From IMG/VR virus record IMGVR_UViG_3300027852_000006, positions 1 to 62,460 of that record: DNA of 62,460 bases; one strand, given 5' to 3'. The translations under genes and the position numbers were made by a program. Shown here in pieces: positions 2,739 through 62,460 of this stretch (position 1 is its first letter; every line of letters starts with the position of its first letter). A model generated the notes under the pieces. That model ran no database searches, was not told the DNA's origin, and was given only the letters and a program-made list of their open reading frames with translations. Source of the stretch: a virus.

Positions 2739-3134
2739 TCAAAAAGGGATTTCATCTCGCGGCGGCCCATCATCTGATGAACTAGCACCAGAATCTTGCT
2801 CTTGTTTCTTTGGCATAAGCTGGAAGCCGTTGATACGAATTGTATGCTTATTTCGCTCGCGGCCTTCTTTGTCTTCCCATTTTTCAAGGCGTAGTTCACC
2901 TTCAATTAGCAATAGATCGCCCTTGCCCACATACTTGTCAATTGTTTCGGCTTGCTTACCGAATGCTTTCACGTCGATGAAACATGTGTCGTCTACTTCT
3001 GTGCCATCTTTTTTTGTGTATCTTTTGTTGACTGCCATGCCAAAATTAACAACCGGCATTTGGCTTGGCAGATGCTTTAAGCTGGGGGTACGTGTTAGGC
3101 GGCCTAATAGTATCACTTTGTTGTAGTTTGACAT
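2739..3134 (-). CDS. ssb: Single-stranded DNA-binding protein
   Basis: A 131-residue bacterial-type SSB. Residues 1-105 form the OB fold with typical landmarks: N-terminal NKVILLGRLTRTP, then VVNFGMAVNKRYT, then the F-DVKAFGKQAE segment and GDLLLIEGELRLEKWED. A short flexible linker leads to the acidic-hydrophobic tip DEIPF that recruits replication and repair partners. It would coat single strands during phage replication and strand annealing. It overlaps the upstream gene by 22 bp and has a GAAAGGA site. Confidence 0.95.
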   Translation of the reverse strand: MSNYNKVILLGRLTRTPSLKHLPSQMPVVNFGMAVNKRYTKKDGTEVDDTCFIDVKAFGKQAETIDKYVGKGDLLLIEGELRLEKWEDKEGRERNKHTIRINGFQLMPKKQEQDSGASSSDDGPPRDEIPF

Positions 3135-3897: not shown

Positions 3898-4103
3898 TGG
3901 TTATCTACCTCGCGGCGATACTTAGCATTGACAGCATCTAGTATCTCCTGGTCATGGGCGTCAGAACCTATCTCTTGCCCACAGTTAATACATAGCTCCA
4001 CCGTAACTGGTACGGTGATTTCACGGCCATGCACAGTATAGGTTTCTTGCGTGTTGCTGATTTGTACAGCATGGTAACCTTCGCAATTGGGACAAAACTT
4101 CAT
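3894..4103 (-). CDS. MqsA/YgiT-type zinc-finger protein
   Basis: 69 residues: FCPNCEGYHAVQ near the N-terminus and ELCINCGQEIG in the middle form a two-CxxC zinc ribbon separated by a beta-hairpin (QETYTVHGREITVPV). This is the N-terminal half of MqsA-like antitoxins and a widespread small phage protein. No HTH follows, so a regulator or nuclease partner role is open. The start overlaps the upstream stop as ATGA. Confidence 0.65.
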   Translation of the reverse strand: MKFCPNCEGYHAVQISNTQETYTVHGREITVPVTVELCINCGQEIGSDAHDQEILDAVNAKYRREVDNQ

Positions 4104-4993
4104 GTCTTGCTTTCTTTTGATAAGTTTTTGTCCGTTTCGATGAGGTGTCCGCAAGCAACATTGCCGTTAATGAGACGACTGCAAATGATTTTCTCATCTT
4201 CATCGCTAATATCTCTCCAATCGCAAATCCCTGCGAAAATCCTCAATCCAACGTCTAACGTGGATTTACAAATAATTTGTGAACCACAGACGATGCTTCT
4301 GTCTGCTTTAATGATTCTGCCTGACTCAATGCTTCCGCCTGCTTTAATATATCCGCCTGATTTAATCAATGCTCCTGTAAGGCTTCCGCCTATCGTAATG
4401 TTCCCGTTAGACTCAATGATATTGTCTGCTTCAACATTCCCGCTAGATTCAATATTTTCGCCAGATTTAATACATGCGGCTGCTTCAATGTCTCCACCTG
4501 CTTTAATGCTTTCGCCTGATTGGATTGCCCAGCCAGATTTAATACTCCCGCCTGATTTAATACTTTCATCTGTTTCAACGTCTCCACCTGCTTTAATGTC
4601 TTTGCCTGTTTTAATTGCCCAGCCAGACTTGATGCTTCCGCCGGATTTAATACTTATGACTGCTTCAATGCTTCCGCCTATTGCAATGCTTCCGCGTGCT
4701 TTAATGTTTCCTCCTGCTTTGATACTTCCGCTTGTGTCAATGTCACAGAGTGCTACAATATCTTCGCTTGCTTCAATGCTTCCATCTACGTCAATGTCTC
4801 CGTCAGATTTAATGGTTCCGTTAGCTTTAATTCCTTGGTTAGATATAATGTCCCCGTCGGATATAAGGTTACCGTCGACATACAGTGGCTTGCTAAGTTT
4901 GATATGTATTGGCCCATATTCTTCGACCGAATCCTCAATCCTATATTCATATTTAACATTAACTAGTCCTTCAAATGTTTTGTCAATTATCAT
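4100..4993 (-). CDS. Bactofilin-like beta-solenoid repeat protein, copy 1
   Basis: 297 residues with three parts. N-terminal about 45 residues: IIDKTFEGLV, then IHIKLSKPLYVDGN. Middle, residues about 45-235: some 30 units of six residues of the form G-G-S/D-I-K/E-A/S (SGGSIKSGWAI and so on), the periodicity of a parallel beta-helix with isoleucine facing inward, as in bactofilins. C-terminal cap: IVCGSQIICKSTLDVGLRIFAG followed by about 40 residues ending in IETDKN. No signal peptide or membrane segment. Four paralogs follow in the same strand and all share the cap and N-module. A polymer-forming or scaffold role is inferred from the fold only. Confidence 0.8.
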   Translation of the reverse strand: MIIDKTFEGLVNVKYEYRIEDSVEEYGPIHIKLSKPLYVDGNLISDGDIISNQGIKANGTIKSDGDIDVDGSIEASEDIVALCDIDTSGSIKAGGNIKARGSIAIGGSIEAVISIKSGGSIKSGWAIKTGKDIKAGGDVETDESIKSGGSIKSGWAIQSGESIKAGGDIEAAACIKSGENIESSGNVEADNIIESNGNITIGGSLTGALIKSGGYIKAGGSIESGRIIKADRSIVCGSQIICKSTLDVGLRIFAGICDWRDISDEDEKIICSRLINGNVACGHLIETDKNLSKESKT

Positions 4994-5014
4994 GATACGC
5001 TCCTTTCGATTAGG

Positions 5015-6211
5015 CTAGTCCCTCCATGTCTCACCTGTTTCAGTGAGTTCTCCACAAATAATTTCCCCAAAAACGTGTTCACCGCAAATGATATTCTTTT
5101 CGTCTTTACTAACACTTTTGCGACGGCATCCCCCAGCAAAAATCTTTGTTTTAGCATTCAACTGGTATTTACAAATAATCTTACAACCACAGATAATACT
5201 TTTGCCTGAGTGAATATCTTCGCCCGACTCAATGTTTCCGCCCGCTTCAATATTCCAGTCAGATTCAATGTCCCCGCCGGATTTAATGTTCCCGTTTACT
5301 TCAATCTCCTCGTGGGATTTAATTCTCCCTCCAGATTCAATGTTTTTGTCGGTTTTAGTGCTTCCTTCTACTTCAATACATCCGCCTGCTTCAATACATC
5401 CACCTGCTTTAAGGTCTTTGCCGACTTTAATGTCACAGTCTGTCTTGATACCTCCACCTATTTCAATAAATTCACCAGCTTCAATTTTTTTTTTGGCTTT
5501 GACGCTGGACGCTTTGATATCTTCTTTTGCTTTAATGCACCCGCCGGATTCAATACTACCGGCTGCTTCAACGTCCACTTCTGCTTCAATGTCTCCGCCG
5601 GATATAATGCTTCCATCACGTGCAGTAATATGTTCGTCAACTTTAATATTTCCACCTGCTTTAATGTTGTATTCACAGTCAATGCAACCGTCACTGGATT
5701 GAATGTCCTTGGTTGCTTCAATGTTGTCGTAGGAAACAATGCTTCCGACAGATTCAATACTTCCCCCTGCTTTGATGTCGCCTGATTCAATTTCCCCGCC
5801 GCATTCAATGTTTCCGGCTGCTTCGATGTCCCCGTGCGTTTGCGATATAATGTCTCCGCCGGATATAATACTTCCGCCTGATTTAATGTCTCCGCCAGGT
5901 CTAATACCTTCGCCAGATTCAATATTTCCACCTGCTTCAATGTCTCCGCCAGTGTTAAAGTCTCCGCCAGATTTAATGGTTTTGTTTGCCCTAATGTTTC
6001 CATGACATATAATGTCTTTATCAGATGCAATGTCTCCGTCAGACGCAATGTATCCGTCAGATTTAATGTCTCCGTAGGATTTAATGTCCCCGCGGACATA
6101 CAACGGTTTATCAAGTTCAATATGTAGCGATTTGTTCGTTTTGATCGAACCCTTGATTTCATACGCCTGCCCAGTGTCAACTAGTTTTTTGTACGTTTTG
6201 TCAATCTTCAT
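5015..6211 (-). CDS. Bactofilin-like beta-solenoid repeat protein, copy 2 (longest)
   Basis: 398 residues from the ATG at 6211 (AAAGGGAC site, conserved MKIDKTYKKLVD opening; an upstream start at 6289 would overlap copy 3). Same three-part plan as copy 1, with roughly 45-50 hexapeptide-type units, many SGGDI/EAGGNI. The cap reads IICGCKIICKYQLNAKTKIFAG. The number of units varies freely between copies, suggesting gain and loss of repeats by recombination. The periodic coding creates long false open frames on the opposite strand. Confidence 0.8.
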   Translation of the reverse strand: MKIDKTYKKLVDTGQAYEIKGSIKTNKSLHIELDKPLYVRGDIKSYGDIKSDGYIASDGDIASDKDIICHGNIRANKTIKSGGDFNTGGDIEAGGNIESGEGIRPGGDIKSGGSIISGGDIISQTHGDIEAAGNIECGGEIESGDIKAGGSIESVGSIVSYDNIEATKDIQSSDGCIDCEYNIKAGGNIKVDEHITARDGSIISGGDIEAEVDVEAAGSIESGGCIKAKEDIKASSVKAKKKIEAGEFIEIGGGIKTDCDIKVGKDLKAGGCIEAGGCIEVEGSTKTDKNIESGGRIKSHEEIEVNGNIKSGGDIESDWNIEAGGNIESGEDIHSGKSIICGCKIICKYQLNAKTKIFAGGCRRKSVSKDEKNIICGEHVFGEIICGELTETGETWRD

Positions 6212-6222
6212 AATACGTCCCT

Positions 6223-6744
6223 TTAATTGTTTTCGTCCGTTTCGATAAGGTGCCCGTAAGCAACTTCCCCGATAATGAGTTGGCTGCAAATGATTTCCTT
6301 ATCTTTGTCATCAACTTTTTTCTGGCCACAGTAAACCCCAGCGAAGATTCTCAATTTAGCATACAATGCGGCCTTACAAATAATAGTACAACCACAGATG
6401 ATGCTTTTGTCTGATTGAATGTTTCCGCCGGATTTAATGTCTAAGTCTGCTATAATATGCCCGCCAGATAAAATACCTTCGCCTATTACAATGTTTCCGC
6501 CGGATTTAATGTCTCCGTAGGATATAATGCCACCTTTCGTTTTAATGTCCCAGCCGGATTCAATACACCCACCAGACTGAATACTTTCGGTTGATATAAG
6601 CTCTCCGCCGGATTTGATGTCTCTACAGACATACAACGGTTTGTCGAGATTGATATGTAGTGATTCGTCTGTTTCGATCGAGCCCCTAATCTTATACCTA
6701 TGTCTAATATCAATTAGCCCTTCATACGTTTTGTCAATTATCAT
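6223..6744 (-). CDS. Bactofilin-like beta-solenoid repeat protein, copy 3 (short)
   Basis: 173 residues. N-module MIIDKTYEGLIDIRHRYKIRG and LHINLDKPLYVCRDI, then only about 12-14 hexapeptide units, then the cap IICGCTIICKAALYAKLRIFAG and the tail ICSQLIIGEVAYGHLIETDE. The N-module and cap are closest to copy 1 in sequence. Ribosome site GAAAGGGATG. It shows the minimal complete family member. Confidence 0.8.
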   Translation of the reverse strand: MIIDKTYEGLIDIRHRYKIRGSIETDESLHINLDKPLYVCRDIKSGGELISTESIQSGGCIESGWDIKTKGGIISYGDIKSGGNIVIGEGILSGGHIIADLDIKSGGNIQSDKSIICGCTIICKAALYAKLRIFAGVYCGQKKVDDKDKEIICSQLIIGEVAYGHLIETDENN

Positions 6745-7577: not shown

Positions 7578-8540
7578 TCAAGAGCACATTATCGTTTTTC
7601 GCCATTCCAATCGCTCACTAGCATCTTTTGCCGGTTGGGCTTTGAAATGCTTTTCGATCTGTTTCCAAGTAACAATCCATCTACCACAAGCTGTGTCTTG
7701 ACCCCGCACCAACAGTGAATCTCTTACCGCAGTTAGCTTTTTATATTCTTTAGCCGTCGGCTCCAGGTCCGCTATCTGATCTAATACAGCTTCTAATTCC
7801 CCATCGTCGCTGATTTTCAAATTCCCACCAGTCGAGTATTTCGGGCAGCAATGAGAAAAGAATTTGCATTGTGGGCATTCTTTGGGATCGTTAATCCCCT
7901 CCGGTGGAATTTCGTTTGCGATAGCTTGGTTAATTGTTTGGGCTTTTTTCAATAATTCCTCGCAATACTCCATGTCGATCGGGAAATCGATCATCTTCAT
8001 GTCATATAGATTCGTTTTGTTGACGCACAAAATAAAGCATTGTTCCAGGTTATGGGCCAGAGCATAAAGCATCAATTGCCCGCGGTAGCGTCGTGTCCAT
8101 GAGTACCTTGACAGACTGTCATAGCCAGTGATCTGAGGATAGATATTTGGACTCATTGTCTTAATGTCTATAACGCCCATCGTCTCCCATTTGCCTGCCG
8201 TCTCTGTTTGCAGGAACCCATCGATTGTCCCTGAAATTTGGTAGTCTTTTAATAGTTTGTCGTTGGTGGTTGTTTGTGTGCCAACGATACGAAATCTTGG
8301 TTCAGTCGCATATCCAACTTCTGAAACAATCCGCTCTATAACAGGCTCTAATATGTTGCCAGTCTCAAATATGCCTTGCAGCTTGTCGTCGGTCTCTGTC
8401 GCCTTGTTCCAGTCATGCCGGGCGAGATATAGCCGTCTAAGACACGGATCATCTAACGAGCTAATCCGGTTTACATGCTGTGGGAATGTTTTCTTTTTGC
8501 TTTGCAGTACAGAACTAAGTCCGTCGCTAATATCAATCAT
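7578..8540 (-). CDS. PD-(D/E)XK exonuclease, Cas4/RecB-like
   Basis: 320 residues. Features in order: an N-terminal SSLDDPCLRRLYLARHDW with the first cysteine, FETGNILEPVIERI, YQISGTIDGFLQ (first catalytic Asp), VIDIKTMS (the D-x-K core), RRYRGQLMLYAL (QxxxY motif IV) and a C-terminal CPQCKFFSHCCP cluster that could hold an iron-sulfur centre. This is the Cas4/AddB-type architecture. It would resect double-strand ends, and the adjacent gene product may anneal the strands. The two genes overlap by 8 bp, implying coupled expression. AGGAG site. Confidence 0.8.
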   Translation of the reverse strand: MIDISDGLSSVLQSKKKTFPQHVNRISSLDDPCLRRLYLARHDWNKATETDDKLQGIFETGNILEPVIERIVSEVGYATEPRFRIVGTQTTTNDKLLKDYQISGTIDGFLQTETAGKWETMGVIDIKTMSPNIYPQITGYDSLSRYSWTRRYRGQLMLYALAHNLEQCFILCVNKTNLYDMKMIDFPIDMEYCEELLKKAQTINQAIANEIPPEGINDPKECPQCKFFSHCCPKYSTGGNLKISDDGELEAVLDQIADLEPTAKEYKKLTAVRDSLLVRGQDTACGRWIVTWKQIEKHFKAQPAKDASERLEWRKTIMCS

Positions 8541-14004: not shown

Positions 14005-14706
14005 TTACTTAGTTCTGTTGCTTGATTTAATGCTACCAGCCACATTGGTGTTCTCAGGCTTGGGAATCATCCCGCCTGCTACAACATTCCCGTCGGATGT
14101 GAGGTAGATACATTCAATGTATTTCGCCACAATAACATCCTTGGCTGCGGTAATATGACCAATAGCCGCGATATAGCCGTCGGATTGTATTTTGCCGCCG
14201 GATTGCATGGATTTAGACGTCGATATATTGCCGCCCGATTCAATGCCTAATCCGACAAAAATATCTTTTCCGGCGCTGATGTCTTTGTCCGCAGTAAGGC
14301 TCCCTTTAACCTTAATCCCCCCATCCGTAACGATTGTCCCGTCGGATTGTATGTGCCCGTCGGATTCTATGGTTCTTGATGCAGCTATTTTGCCACCGGC
14401 TGTAATGCCGTCGACTGCATATATAGATTTATCCGACCCAATAGAACCGTCCACCTTGAGGCTGCCGCCCACACTTATGCACCCTTCTGCGTCAATGAGC
14501 CCAGAGACTTCCAGACTATTAAGTGACTCAAGGTTCCCGCCTACCCTGATGTTGCCTTGCAAAAACAGCGGTTTGTCGAGTTCGATTTTTACGTTGGTAT
14601 TACCGTCTATTCGATAACCTGCGTAGATATCTCCCGTGAATTTGTACGATTCACCATTGCCGACAAGGCCTTTGAGCGATGTGTCAATTTTTATGGTCTC
14701 TTCCAT
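14005..14706 (-). CDS. Bactofilin-like beta-solenoid protein, copy 5 (first gene of the early unit)
   Basis: 233 residues from the ATG at 14706 (GAAGGGAT site). N-module IKIDTSLKGLVGNGESYKF and IELDKPLFLQGNI, then about 25 hexapeptide units (SGGNISTSKSMQSGGKIQ...). The C-terminus lacks the usual IICK...IFAG cap and ends in CIYLTSDGNVVAGGMIP. It is the first gene after the sigma70-type promoter at 14773-14801, so it should be among the first phage products made. Confidence 0.75.
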   Translation of the reverse strand: MEETIKIDTSLKGLVGNGESYKFTGDIYAGYRIDGNTNVKIELDKPLFLQGNIRVGGNLESLNSLEVSGLIDAEGCISVGGSLKVDGSIGSDKSIYAVDGITAGGKIAASRTIESDGHIQSDGTIVTDGGIKVKGSLTADKDISAGKDIFVGLGIESGGNISTSKSMQSGGKIQSDGYIAAIGHITAAKDVIVAKYIECIYLTSDGNVVAGGMIPKPENTNVAGSIKSSNRTK

Positions 14707-14772
14707 TTTTTTAATCCCTTCTAAATGAAATCTTAACTTTCTAACCCACCACAACAGTAGGCTCTATTGTTA

Positions 14773-14801
14773 AGTATATCGTCAAAACATATAAAAGTCA
14801 A
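14773..14801 (-). promoter_or_regulatory. Strong sigma70-type leftward early promoter
   Basis: On the minus strand TTGACT (14801-14796), a 17-bp spacer and TATACT (14778-14773). It points at solenoid copy 5 and the long leftward unit. Spacing is ideal and both boxes match 5 of 6 consensus bases. Confidence 0.7.
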
Positions 14802-14809
14802 TAGAAAAA

Positions 14810-15725
14810 TATATATTTAATATGATTTTGTTCTAAGCATAGCAATACCAACAGGTTATACCAAAAAAAAGATTATAGAAAAACAACTGTTTTTTTGCAG
14901 ACGTGCTAATTTCCAGGGAACGCAAAAAGAATTGTAAACGTAAAATTGGATTTGTTTTTTATCTGTGATTGTAAGTATAGTAAAGACAATACTTTACAGA
15001 ATGAGCCATATAGGGGGACTGTGCTTGGTAGTGATTTTGGACTGAAATTGGGTAAATTTGGATAATAGTGATTGTGATTTGATTGTGTTTGTGATAAGAA
15101 GGTAATAAGGTTTAGTAGTTAATTTGAGCGATTAACGTGATAGATAACACACAGGGGTCGTCAACTGATCTTCGTTCAGCTGCCGACACACGTTAGAATA
15201 TTTTTCAGAGAATAGAAGAGAAGAATATGATATGCTTGTTTTCTCGTTTTGGGAATATAGGTAATATAGGGACATAAGAGAAAGATTGTAGTCTACTATA
15301 GTTCTGGAATACCCATCCCATCCCGTCCGCCCAACCCATGGTAAAAACTTTATTTATGTTTGTCTATAAGAAAAGAAACTTTTTTTAACTTCTTTGTTTG
15401 CTGGTAGTTATGGGTGTTTGGAGTTTGTTTTCTTTTGCTAAAAGTAAGCAACTCAAATAATTGCAGGGACGTTTTCGGGTGTTTTTATGCTCATTTTCGC
15501 TGAAAATCTGCGTTTTTGGGTTGTTATGGGGGTTTTTGGGGATAAAACTGCTATAGTCACTAAAAAACAGGTAATTCATAGACATTGAGAATACCTGCAA
15601 ATATGGGTAATTGCGATAAAAACTGCGTAAAAAATCAAGAAACAAGCTAAACTGAAAGCAAAACTGCGCAAAAAGGTGCAAAAAACTTTGATTAAAAATC
15701 ATCAAAAACCTGCTTTACGTGCGTG
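14810..15725. other. AT-rich non-coding stretch of the hub
   Basis: About 900 bp with no gene I can support. It is A/T-rich with G-tracts (for example GGGGGTTTTTGGGG near 15524-15540) and repeated AAAACTGCG(C/T)AAAAA words at 15620-15680. It lies beside the iterons at 15750, so an origin-unwinding or regulatory role is possible. The 106-codon minus-strand frame at 15385-15705 has phenylalanine-rich, non-protein-like composition and is not called. Confidence 0.4.
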
Positions 15726-15728
15726 TAT

Positions 15729-15782
15729 GGCTGTTTTTGGTGTTAAACACGTAACGGATACGTAACGGATACGTAACGGATG
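15729..15782. repeat. Three tandem 11-bp iterons with flank copied from the initiator gene
   Basis: CGTAACGGATA occurs at 15750-15760, 15761-15771 and, with a final G, 15772-15782. The 20 bases before them (GGCTGTTTTTGGTGTTAAAC, 15729-15748) match the initiator-gene segment at 61330-61351 read on the minus strand. This looks like a second copy of the presumed origin. Confidence 0.7.
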
Positions 15783-15867
15783 CGGCCCGTTTGCGTAATG
15801 TACGCGGGCATAGACTGTAACTACCTTATCGATGGTTATAAAAAAGGGCCCAATTAAGGGCCCGGAA

Positions 15868-15901
15868 GAATCACCCGCACGGATAGCCGTGGTTCGGATT
15901 C
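15868..15901. other. Hairpin in the non-coding hub
   Basis: GAATC...CACGG-ATAG-CCGTG...GATTC forms a long interrupted stem (15868-15901). It follows the smaller inverted repeat GGGCCCAATTAAGGGCCC (15846-15863). No T-run follows directly, so it is not a simple terminator. Confidence 0.5.
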
Positions 15902-15949
15902 TGATACATGTATTATAGCCTGTTATGTTGACTGTGTCAAATTATAAGT

Positions 15950-15978
15950 TTGACAATTTATCAAGGCCTGTCTATTAT
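15950..15978 (+). promoter_or_regulatory. Sigma70-type rightward promoter
   Basis: TTGACA at 15950-15955, exactly 17 bp, then TATTAT at 15973-15978. It faces a roughly 200-bp GC-richer segment without a convincing gene, so it may drive a small RNA or the rightward late unit. Confidence 0.65.
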
Positions 15979-15984
15979 ATAGAT

Positions 15985-16196
15985 AGACTTCTCTGTCAGC
16001 GGCAGTGGAAGATATCAAGGCCCGCGTGGAGCCAGCCTGGCGAATCTGCGTCAACGAGTATTCTACTGCCACGGGTGTAGTAAGAATATCAGTCGCCGTC
16101 GGTGTGAATTGGCGGCGACGGCTTTATAGCTCATCTGCCAGGTGCAGAAGTGAGAAACGGCGTCGTCCGGTTGGCGGCGTCAGTTTTTTTATGCTC
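15985..16196 (+). ncRNA. Candidate structured RNA
   Basis: Starts about 7 bases after the promoter at 15950-15978 and ends at a seven-T run (16189-16195). Inside are foldable elements: GTCGCCG...CGGCGAC (16092-16122) and CTCATCTGC-CAGG-TGCAG..TGAG (16130-16154). The base composition is distinctly more GC-rich than the surroundings. The GTG-started 67-codon frame here (16005-16208) has no ribosome site. Identity unknown. Confidence 0.35.
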
Positions 16197-16246: not shown

Positions 16247-16282
16247 AAAAACCGGCGGAGACTCGTAAAAGCCTGCCGCCGG
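16247..16282 (-). terminator. Leftward intrinsic terminator
   Basis: Minus strand: CCGGCGG-c-AGGC, loop, GTCT-CCGCCGG, then TTTTT. It lies downstream of the minus-strand gene 16416-16727. A related terminator is at 16944-16975. Confidence 0.6.
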
Positions 16283-16389
16283 CCAAGAGGAGGAGGAAAA
16301 CGCTCGATTCGTTAATGATTTTTACGTTGTAAAGTCACAGAATTTTGCACGTCAACGCACTTTATGTCTTAAGCGTTCAACTCAACATT

Positions 16390-16892: not shown

Positions 16893-17075
16893 TCAGATCA
16901 TCGTTCTACGCAAATTACGCAGAATACGCAGAATGTTCCAAGCAAAAAACCGGCAACGGCTCATTAAAGCCTGCCACCAGCTAGAGGAGGCTGGAAATAC
17001 TTGATATTGCCGACGATCACCGCCAACCCAGAACCACCCATAACGATCATCAGTATCCTGTCTTTTTTCCGCCAT
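16893..17075 (-). CDS. Short protein with the same YGWFW decoration fragment
   Basis: 60 residues. Residues 7-20 (DTDDRYGWFWVGGD) copy the decoration-protein motif TDNYYGWFWTGG at 31327-31362, again at DNA level. The remainder is arginine- and tryptophan-rich and overlaps the terminator at 16944-16975, so transcripts may end inside the frame and the protein may be a decayed or leader product. A good promoter lies only about 8 bp before the ATG. Confidence 0.35.
   Translation of the reverse strand: MAEKRQDTDDRYGWFWVGGDRRQYQVFPASSSWWQALMSRCRFFAWNILRILRNLRRTMI
16944..16975 (-). terminator. Leftward intrinsic terminator inside a short reading frame
   Basis: Minus strand: GGCA, GGCT, loop TTAATG, AGCC, gt, TGCC, then GG and six Ts. 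Sequence and layout match the terminator at 16247-16282 (shared AAAACCGGC...AAAGCCTGCC), so the two are copies of one element. Confidence 0.5.
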
Positions 17076-59539: not shown

Positions 59540-59995
59540 TTATCCCTCCATGCTTATGCCAGTACTCAAAATCCACAGAGCATCAGCGACATTATCGTCG
59601 TCGCCGTCGTATCCAAATGTTTCCCTCGCGGCATTGATCATAGCTTGTTTGCCAGCGTTGCCCTTGCCTGTAGCATGTTTCTTGATTGTGCCGACGTGAA
59701 TCCCGCAATATGGAATCTTGTGTTTCTCACACCACAGTTGCAAAGTCGCAAGAAAACCACCGTAGACATGAGCCGCAGCAGTGCCTTTGTGTCTGGCGAC
59801 CAACTCATAATACACCACGTCAGGGCAAGGTTTGAAATTCTCCAAGTATAGATTGAATTTGAGATATCGCATACCGCCACCCTCGTGCCTGCTGTTTGTA
59901 AAGTCCAAACAGTCAAAACGGAAACTTTTGAGTTCACGGTCCTTATCATACGCGACGCCGCAATGTGTACCTAGATCAAACGCAAGTCTAAACAT
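59540..59995 (-). CDS. RuvC-like Holliday junction resolvase
   Basis: 151 residues. RNase H-fold pattern: LAFDLGTHCGVAYD (first Asp), DVVYYELVARH (Glu), GGFLATLQLWCEKHKIPYCG, GTIKKHATGKGNAGKQAMI and DDDNVADALWIL (last Asp pair). Phage RuvC proteins resolve branched DNA before packaging. Fits the recombination genes and terminase. Confidence 0.8.
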   Translation of the reverse strand: MFRLAFDLGTHCGVAYDKDRELKSFRFDCLDFTNSRHEGGGMRYLKFNLYLENFKPCPDVVYYELVARHKGTAAAHVYGGFLATLQLWCEKHKIPYCGIHVGTIKKHATGKGNAGKQAMINAARETFGYDGDDDNVADALWILSTGISMEG

Positions 59996-60639: not shown

Positions 60640-61716
60640 TTACGGTGAAAGCCAGGCACCTTGTAGGGAAAATCCGCTTTTTTCGCTTTTTTTAGGATTA
60701 TCCAATTCTTCCAAAGCCTGGTCCGCCCAATCTTCACCGGCGAACAATCTCAAATCTTTGGCTGACACTGGCTTGCCTGATTCTACCTTAGCCCGCAGAT
60801 ATGGACGGTTGCGTTCCCTTGCTTCACGCTTGGTCTGCTCTACGCCGTCGAATACATCACCCATGGACGGCGATTGCGAAGCGCATTCGTCAAGCCACCT
60901 CTCTTGATTAAGCCACGTCGATGGATTCGGAATAAACTGCCCATGTTCACTCTGCCATTGCTGTGACCCACATTGTTTTTTCACCGCGGCGATTATGTCC
61001 TCAGTCAATTCTGGCGATGGCTTAATCTTGAGCCATTTACTCCGGGCGGCCCCCTTGCCAATCTTGCGGGGGTATGACTCCCAGAATTTATCGAACTGAG
61101 CGAGCAGGGCTTTCTTCGCAATGGCAGATTTTTTTTTCTTCACTGAAGAACTCTCGTTGGTGACCGTTTCGGTCGCCGACCCCTGTGGGCTGGGCTGTTC
61201 AGTGTGTGACGTATCCGTTACGCGTTCGGGGTATGTAGTTGTAGTTGTAGTTGTAGTTGAATATAGCGGCCCGCGTCCGTTACGCGCCCGTTCCGGGTCC
61301 TGTAACGTATCCGTTACGCGTCCGTTACGTGCGGAATCATCAAAAACAGCCTTTTCGTGTGCGTAAGGCGGGAATCTGATGTCTTGCTTGATGTCTTTCC
61401 GTAGGTGTTTCTTGCACTTTTTTATGTGGATATATATTTCGTTTTCGTGGCGAAATTTTACGATCAGTCCAATTTCGACCAACTCTTTGACCCATTTTTT
61501 GATTTTTCGCTCAGAAACTTGTCCGTTTTTTTTGCGTTCTGCGAAAAGTTTGCATAAAATTAGTGAAGAGTCTCCATCAAAATTGGCTCCATCATCGCTC
61601 CTGGCAATGAGTCTGGTGAACAAAGTTTCGGCCTCGAAACTGACAGCATTTACCTTTTTGCTATCGGGATACGAACACCGTAAAGGTGTCCATGGATCGC
61701 GTATAGGCTCTGCCAT
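60640..61716 (-). CDS. Replication initiator / helicase loader (lambda O-like layout)
   Basis: 358 residues, starting five bases after the dnaB stop with AAGGAG. Residues 1-110 are winged-helix-like (SFEAETLFTRLIARSDDGAN, RKIKKWVKELVEIGLIVKF). The linker (about 120-200) is low-complexity and contains eight Thr encoded by a short repeat. The C-terminal part (FDKFWESYPRKIGKGAARSK, QFIPNPSTWLNQERWLDEC) is the helicase-interacting module found in phage replisome organisers. The linker DNA holds four iteron cores, as the lambda origin lies inside O. Confidence 0.75.
   Translation of the reverse strand: MAEPIRDPWTPLRCSYPDSKKVNAVSFEAETLFTRLIARSDDGANFDGDSSLILCKLFAERKKNGQVSERKIKKWVKELVEIGLIVKFRHENEIYIHIKKCKKHLRKDIKQDIRFPPYAHEKAVFDDSARNGRVTDTLQDPERARNGRGPLYSTTTTTTTTYPERVTDTSHTEQPSPQGSATETVTNESSSVKKKKSAIAKKALLAQFDKFWESYPRKIGKGAARSKWLKIKPSPELTEDIIAAVKKQCGSQQWQSEHGQFIPNPSTWLNQERWLDECASQSPSMGDVFDGVEQTKREARERNRPYLRAKVESGKPVSAKDLRLFAGEDWADQALEELDNPKKSEKSGFSLQGAWLSP
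61214..61329. repeat. Iteron cores inside the initiator gene (presumed origin)
   Basis: TCCGTTACG occurs at 61214-61222, 61276-61284, 61310-61318 and 61321-61329; the last two are 11 bp apart like the intergenic iterons (CGTAACGGA is its complement). They encode the linker of the initiator. Confidence 0.75.
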
Positions 61717-61720
61717 TACT

Positions 61721-62460
61721 TTACTCCTTACTTGTGAATCTCATCGAGTTGCCTTCCCAGTCGAGTCGGACTTCGCCGGTCGGCCCAGACCTCTGTTTGG
61801 CCAAAACAATAATTCCCTCACCGGTCTTTTTGGTCTCGTCACGGATGTAATAATCCGGTCTGTAGAGCAACATAACCGTGTCGGCATCCTGTTCGATATT
61901 GCCAGATTCGCGTAGATCGGATAGCCTGGGCCGGTGGTTTTCTCGCGTCTCGGCTTCACGATTCAACTGGCAGACGACCATCACTGGTATCTTTAATTCA
62001 CGTGCCAAGAGTTTTAATTGCCGCGAACATTCGCCGACCTTTTCATATCGCTTTTTATCCCCAGGCAGGTCCATGAGTTGCATATAATCAACCACTATGA
62101 GCTTTATGTCGTGTGTTCGCTTTAGTGCCCTTGCTTGGCTTCGCAGGGATGTAGGCGTGAGCTTCGGCGTATCGTTAATCAACAGCGGCATCTGTGATAT
62201 TTCGTGAGCCGTTTCGTCAAGCGTGCGAATACCGTCATCATTGAGATAGCCCTTTTGCATCTGGTGCATACCAAGATTGCTATGGCGGGCGATAGACCGT
62301 TCGCCTAGCTGCAATTTTGACATCTCCAGCGAAAAAACTACCACAGATATATTTTGACTTGCTACATTCTCGGCAATGTTGAAAGCTAGCACGGACTTGC
62401 CCATGCTAGGGCGACCAGCGACAACGATCATCTCGCCAGAATGCAAGCCGCCGGTTATCT
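61721..62460 (-). CDS. dnaB: Replicative DnaB-type helicase, C-terminal part (continues from 1-678)
   Basis: Codes for the RecA-like ATPase domain of the 432-residue helicase: GRPSMGKS (P-loop), FSLEMSKLQLGERSIA (the H1a/SLEM segment), IKLIVVDYMQLMD (Walker B), VMVVCQLNREAETR and LRESGNIEQDADTVMLLYRP (the H4/arginine-finger region). Bases 62342-62460 duplicate 1-119. Ends with TAA at 61721, five bases before the initiator gene start. In the cell it unwinds DNA ahead of a host polymerase, as no phage polymerase is visible. Confidence 0.95.
   Translation of the reverse strand, partial: ITGGLHSGEMIVVAGRPSMGKSVLAFNIAENVASQNISVVVFSLEMSKLQLGERSIARHSNLGMHQMQKGYLNDDGIRTLDETAHEISQMPLLINDTPKLTPTSLRSQARALKRTHDIKLIVVDYMQLMDLPGDKKRYEKVGECSRQLKLLARELKIPVMVVCQLNREAETRENHRPRLSDLRESGNIEQDADTVMLLYRPDYYIRDETKKTGEGIIVLAKQRSGPTGEVRLDWEGNSMRFTSKE
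62342..62460. repeat. Terminal direct repeat, right copy
   Basis: Identical to 1-119; defines a unique circular length of 62,341 bp. Confidence 0.95.

What the first reader, a model, noticed from the sequence alone, without database searches (positions are those of the whole stretch)
60640..61716. Origin inside the initiator gene, with a second copy in the intergenic hub
TCCGTTACG cores occur four times in the linker of the lambda O-like initiator (61214-61329). The hub at 15729-15782 has three perfect 11-bp iterons with the same core plus a 20-bp flank (GGCTGTTTTTG...) matching the initiator gene next to its cores. Thus a segment of the initiator gene exists as non-coding DNA 16.6 kb away on the circle (at the divergent promoters). 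Either two origins exist or the hub copy titrates the initiator to regulate early transcription.
Basis: partly seen in the sequence, partly recalled or inferred. Interest (0 to 1): 0.75.

Follow-up and report, generated by a model that had tools for sequence, protein, structure and literature searches.

The report
Duplicated phage replication-initiator binding array
This phage carries the repeats that its replication-starting protein probably binds twice: once inside that protein's own gene, where such phages usually keep their origin, and again in a non-coding control region 16.8 kb away, a rare pairing best known from Bacillus phage SPP1.

Summary
The window is a complete circular phage genome. 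Its initiator gene (60640-61716, minus strand) encodes an 11-bp iteron array in a disordered linker. The non-coding hub carries the same five-unit module in register (15748-15802), with three units perfect. One 113-bp block (73% identity) joins the two copies; nothing else in the genome comes close. Other phages support an origin inside the gene: CGTAACGG arrays sit in initiator linkers of many otherwise dissimilar phages, in both orientations and several codon phases, so selection is on DNA. Two iteron sets also show a simple-repeat tract just 3' of the iterons. This gene has that tract; the hub does not. The hub instead borders the least stable DNA in the genome, at the junction of the two transcription arms, with divergent promoters. 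None of 27 comparison phages, including the nearest relative found, has a distant second array. SPP1 oriL/oriR is the known precedent. Most likely the gene copy is the origin and the hub is a duplicated initiator-binding site acting as a second (late) origin or fork-switch site; pure titration or gene regulation remains possible. No binding or replication was measured.

The parts
60640..61716 (-). Replication initiator, 358 aa: winged-helix N-terminal domain, disordered linker (about residues 107-185) encoding the iterons, helical C-terminal domain
   Evidence: PHROG_270 E 4.8e-30; AlphaFold2 model pLDDT 74-91 at residues 21-100 and below 50 at 115-189; Foldseek's best PDB hits are mostly winged-helix DNA-binding proteins, none with E below 0.001
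61270..61331 (-). Intragenic five-unit 11-bp iteron array: CACGTAACGGA CGCGTAACGGA TACGTTACAGGA CCCGGAACGGG CGCGTAACGGA
   Evidence: the CGTAACG core is read in two codon frames in this gene
61234..61259 (-). Simple-repeat tract (CAACTA)n just 3' of the intragenic array; putative unwinding or initiator-loading tract
   Evidence: repeat score 20, the 99th percentile of background; same polarity in most other initiator genes examined
61213..61223 (-). Detached iteron GCGTAACGGAT beyond the tract
15700..15809 (+). Hub block homologous to the initiator gene segment 61269-61381
   Evidence: 113 columns, 73% identity; E 6e-14 against the rest of the own genome
15748..15802 (+). Hub five-unit array: three intact iterons (15749-15781), then two degenerate units, same register as the gene array
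15697..15743 (+). Inverted repeat beside the hub iterons (AATCATCAAAAAC ... GTTTTTGGTGTT); can form a hairpin or cruciform
   Evidence: fold z-score -2.5; exact 13-mer shared only with 61335-61347
14755..15747 (.). AT-rich non-coding region beside the hub array, bordering the genome's lowest duplex stability (centred near 14.8 kb)
   Evidence: least stable 100-, 300- and 900-bp windows of the genome start at 14,784, 14,705 and 14,686; G 206 against C 128, p=2e-5
15912..15940 (-). Consensus sigma-70-type promoter, TTGACA-17-TATAAT, leftward
   Evidence: 12 of 12 match
15846..15863 (-). Intrinsic-terminator-like hairpin between the leftward promoter and the iterons
   Evidence: 4 found, 3.3 expected, so weak
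15950..15978 (+). Sigma-70-type promoter, TTGACA-17-TATTAT, rightward
   Evidence: 11 of 12 match
61721..62446 (-). DnaB-type replicative helicase gene (cut by the contig end)
   Evidence: Pfam DnaB_C E 2e-86
59540..59995 (-). RuvC-like Holliday junction resolvase
   Evidence: PHROG_159 E 2e-24
7578..8540 (-). Cas4/RecE-type exonuclease
   Evidence: PHROG_1990 E 4e-21
2739..3134 (-). Single-strand DNA-binding protein
   Evidence: PHROG_44 E 6e-39

Best explanation
Both arrays are binding sites of the phage's own initiator. The copy in the gene, iterons plus a 3' simple-repeat tract, is the main origin, laid out like the intragenic origins of other phages. The hub is a copy of the iteron half of that origin, placed in non-coding DNA between the two transcription arms and beside the genome's least stable DNA. 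It most likely acts as a second, SPP1 oriR-like initiator site: a secondary or late origin, or a site where bound initiator stalls forks and starts concatemer synthesis, 3 kb upstream of the terminase genes. Shown here: sequence identity of the arrays, their register, their uniqueness in the genome, the initiator family, and DNA-level conservation of such arrays in other initiators. Inferred: binding, unwinding, direction and timing of replication, and the direction of the duplication.
For: 113-bp module shared only by these two places; five units in register; all seven CCGTTACG of the genome lie in them. The nearest relative found (G001, N-terminal domain 72% identical, unrelated C-terminal part) keeps ACGTAACG twice in its linker and nowhere else, so the core appears to go with the DNA-binding domain. 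CGTAACG is 49-fold enriched in the initiator genes of pattern-selected phages even without the pair used to select them, in both orientations and several codon phases; phages sharing only the C-terminal domain have other repeats or none. SPP1 has just such a pair: direct repeats inside gene 38 (oriL) and in a non-coding region about 13 kb away (oriR), both bound by gp38 (PMC6316719, PMC3485210). The phage encodes a helicase, SSB, exonuclease and Holliday junction resolvase comparable to the set used in the SPP1 switch. The hub abuts the global minimum of duplex stability and is the divergence point of the two gene arms.
Against: The hub lacks the 3' tract (score 8 against 20 in the gene) and has only three intact iterons. 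The stability minimum lies about 0.9 kb from the iterons. Skew is confounded with coding strand. No relative preserves the pair, so there is no evolutionary test of hub function.
Confidence: 0.5

Rival explanations
1. Regulatory or titration site: initiator bound at the hub represses, activates or measures early transcription, or soaks up initiator, without ever starting replication there (compare plasmid iteron control).
For: The hub has iterons but no 3' tract; it lies among strong divergent promoters with a terminator-like hairpin between the leftward promoter and the array.
Against: The iterons lie 130-200 bp from the promoters and the terminator-like hairpin separates the leftward promoter from them, so simple promoter blocking is unlikely; an unusually unstable DNA segment beside the array is not needed for titration.
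Confidence: 0.23
2. The hub is the main bidirectional origin and the copy in the gene is an ancestral or backup origin.
For: Forks leaving the hub would be co-directional with nearly all genes; cumulative GC-skew minimum 1 kb from the iterons; most regular iterons; least stable DNA.
Against: Skew extremes fall at coding-strand switches; the gene copy has the complete iteron-plus-tract anatomy shared with many phages.
Confidence: 0.13
3. Non-functional relic of a duplication of part of the initiator gene.
For: Only 73% identical, with indels; two of the five hub units are decayed.
Against: Three hub iterons are perfect while the flanks have diverged, and the site sits at the best-placed non-coding region of a genome that is about 90% coding.
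Confidence: 0.1
4. Remote control by looping, as between the gamma array and the alpha and beta origins of plasmid R6K: the hub array loads initiator and activates the origin in the gene at a distance.
For: Two arrays of one specificity in one replicon.
Against: 16.8 kb is far; nothing in the sequence points specifically to looping. The R6K comparison rests on the writer's own knowledge.
Confidence: 0.04

Closest known systems
Bacillus phage SPP1 oriL/oriR with gp38 (PMC6316719, PMC3485210)
   Same: Initiator-binding direct repeats inside the initiator gene plus a second copy in non-coding DNA about 13 kb away, with AT-rich DNA, and a comparable set of helicase, SSB, exonuclease and Holliday junction resolvase.
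   Different: Relation of the initiator to gp38 was not tested; the hub is at the divergent junction of the two arms beside the terminase genes; the hub copy lacks the 3' tract; binding is untested.
Phage lambda and lambdoid ori in gene O (PMC7466680, PMC3985674)
   Same: Iterons and an AT-rich or repeat tract inside the initiator gene.
   Different: Different iteron (11 bp, CGTAACGG core); adjacent helicase of its own; no second array is described for lambda in the papers read.
Phage P1 oriL in repL and oriR (PMC9948254)
   Same: A lytic origin placed within its initiator gene and a second origin elsewhere.
   Different: In P1 the two belong to different replicons; here both arrays share one sequence. 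No partition, integrase or repressor gene was recognised in the proteins scanned.
Iteron plasmids with control arrays (P1 incA, R6K; own knowledge)
   Same: Extra iterons can titrate or couple initiator.
   Different: Those arrays lie near the origin; here the second is 16.8 kb away.

Membership tests
Intragenic phage origin (lambda O type) | Replication initiator with a DNA-binding N-terminal domain and iterons encoded in its linker | tested here: met
Intragenic phage origin (lambda O type) | AT-rich or repeat tract beside the iterons, where unwinding starts | tested here: met
   Simple-repeat tract in this gene and with the same polarity in other initiator genes; its unwinding role is inferred
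SPP1-type paired origins | Second array of the same repeats in distant non-coding DNA | tested here: met
SPP1-type paired origins | Both sites have repeats plus an AT-rich unwinding region | tested here: inconclusive
   Hub lacks the 3' tract but borders the least stable DNA of the genome
SPP1-type paired origins | Initiator binds both sites | not testable with these tools
   needs purified protein
SPP1-type paired origins | Theta to sigma switch triggered at the second site | not testable with these tools
   needs infected cells; recombination genes are present
SPP1-type paired origins | Homology to SPP1 gp38 | not tested
   SPP1 was not found in the collection under either accession tried
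Iteron titration locus | Extra iterons lower initiation without origin activity | not testable with these tools
   needs copy-number or replication assays

The most novel reading that the evidence does not exclude
The hub is a purpose-made initiator-binding site that copies only the binding half of the origin and lacks the loading tract. It would be a built-in switch by which rising initiator turns the phage from origin firing in the gene to fork stalling and concatemer synthesis beside the terminase genes. This would fit a general two-part design of phage origins, iterons followed by a 3' tract of mostly 4-7-bp repeats.
Probability: 0.2. Interest if true: 0.75.

Novelty: new variant of a known kind. 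Interest (0 to 1): 0.5.

Why it matters
Why some phages carry two sites for one initiator, and how theta replication gives way to concatemers, is understood mainly from SPP1. A second such pair, with one complete and one tract-less copy, separates binding from unwinding and would make the fork-block model directly testable. The comparison also suggests a simple sequence signature for locating origins in uncultured phages: 11-bp-spaced iterons followed by a short-period tract inside initiator genes.

Tried and rejected
Chance: rejected. Protein-repeat explanation: rejected, because the core is read in several frames and both orientations and many tract periods are not multiples of three. Relatives by terminase, capsid protein or initiator (alignment) in viral or genome contigs: none useful except G001 and a distant one, G002, which has no iterons detected. 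Rfam: no RNA family in the window or hub. DnaA boxes: only two TTATCCACA, far from the hub and not above chance. GC skew as proof of origin: rejected as confounded. The count of 46 contigs with the CGTAACGG pair is not itself evidence: a reversed-letter pattern meant as a control gave more loci and turned out to hit another iteron family in initiator genes, so only the position of the arrays is used. SPP1 could not be fetched as a positive control. Iterons in 12 phages sharing the C-terminal domain: other sequences or none.

Full report
What is there. The window is a circular phage genome (62,341 unique bp, 119-bp terminal repeat). Genes run leftward from 14,754 through the contig ends to about 51 kb and rightward from 17.2 to 51 kb. 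The initiator gene (60640-61716, minus strand) matches replication-initiation PHROGs (E 4.8e-30) and lies next to a DnaB helicase gene. Its model has a winged-helix N-terminal domain, a disordered linker and a poorly modelled helical C-terminal part; mean pLDDT is 57.8, so only the N-terminal domain is used.

The two arrays. All seven CCGTTACG of the genome lie in two places: four in the DNA of the initiator linker, three in the non-coding hub. They are parts of one 113-bp block, 73% identical, with a score far beyond shuffles and the rest of the genome. Both copies contain five 11-bp units in the same register before CGCGGGC. In the gene, units 1, 2 and 5 are intact; in the hub, units 1-3. 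The hub also carries an inverted repeat made of two versions of the flank element AATCATCAAAAAC. The separation is 16,761 bp on the circle.

Why these are initiator sites. The nearest relative found, G001 (43,056 bp, 51-bp terminal repeat), has an initiator whose first 118 residues are 72% identical and whose C-terminal part is unrelated. Its linker holds ACGTAACG twice, as an inverted repeat, and its genome has no other copy. A pattern scan of IMG/VR for two CGTAACGG cores 11 bp apart gave 46 contigs; most matches lie in initiator-like ORFs, by profile search and PHROG assignment, although a handful lie in non-coding DNA or in unassigned ORFs. In 23 initiator genes there are 100 CGTAACG sites against 53 in the rest of the genomes; leaving out the selecting pair the enrichment is 49-fold. 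Sites occur in both orientations and every codon phase that avoids a stop. This is conservation of DNA, not protein. Phages that share only the C-terminal domain have other repeats or none.

A caution on that scan. A reversed-letter pattern, meant as a control, gave more loci, not fewer, and a quarter of its places also lie in initiator-like ORFs. These turned out to be another iteron family, GGCATTGCC at 11-bp spacing. So 11-bp-spaced repeats in initiator linkers are a general design, CGTAACGG is one of at least two recurring specificities, and the number of contigs alone proves nothing.

The 3' tract. In both families a simple-repeat tract, mostly of period 4-7, follows the iterons on the 3' side of the gene: 3' exceeds 5' in 20 of 21 informative genes in each set (some genes in each set are related to each other, and the two sets were scored with slightly different period limits). 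Many periods are not multiples of three, so the constraint is again on DNA. The window gene has (CAACTA)n there and G001 a 12-bp repeat; the hub has none. The hub is therefore a copy of the binding half of the origin. On its other side lies the least stable DNA of the genome, but the minimum itself is about 0.9 kb away.

Is the pair common? No distant second array was found when the 46 whole records were searched with one mismatch allowed, in the 26 comparison records read through for clusters (a few loose clusters elsewhere in G011, G028, G030, G039 and G043 do not repeat the 11-bp array), or when 27 comparison phages were tested by k-mer clusters and blastn of the initiator gene against the rest of the genome; only the window scored. 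Several of these records may be incomplete.

Mechanism. SPP1 is the closest precedent: gp38 binds direct repeats inside gene 38 (oriL) and in a distant non-coding region (oriR), and gp38 at oriR is thought to stall forks and start concatemer synthesis (PMC6316719, PMC3485210). This phage has a comparable toolkit. I therefore favour an origin in the gene plus an oriR-like second site in the hub, at about even odds, with titration or regulation and hub-as-main-origin as serious rivals. The promoters and skew do not decide: the skew extremes coincide with the coding-strand switches. No binding or replication was measured.

Noticed in passing
L212, L206, L264 and 19 other loci; L191-L302: A second iteron family, GGCATTGCC at 11-bp spacing, followed by a 3' tract such as (GAAAAT)n, in initiator-like genes of many phages; found through a reversed-letter control pattern.
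   Followed up: partly
L153-L157 (G042, G007, G046, G020), e.g. G042:25548-25763: Non-coding CGTAACGG arrays upstream of an ORF with CxxC motifs (zinc-ribbon-like), in fragments where no initiator was recognised; perhaps origins outside the initiator gene.
   Followed up: partly
L139 (G014) 1051-1131: CGTAACG sites on both sides of an AT-rich non-coding core in a 14-kb fragment.
   Followed up: no
L005:4428-5964: Relative G001 keeps the initiator N-terminal domain but has an unrelated C-terminal part and a following P-loop ATPase (helicase-loader-like) in place of the DnaB neighbour: domain swap at the origin-bearing linker.
   Followed up: partly
window 16247-16308 and 16945-17005: Two similar elements (78% and 74%): a GC-rich inverted repeat followed by AGAGGAGG, like a leader hairpin before a ribosome-binding site; no Rfam match.
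   Followed up: no
window 15846-15912 and 15985-16181: Each divergent hub promoter is followed by a terminator-like hairpin, which could give two short non-coding transcripts of about 65 and 200 nt.
   Followed up: no
window 4100-6289: Two genes with FapA-type beta-solenoid matches, repeat-rich proteins unusual for a phage replication arm; weak matches also at 14005-14754.
   Followed up: no
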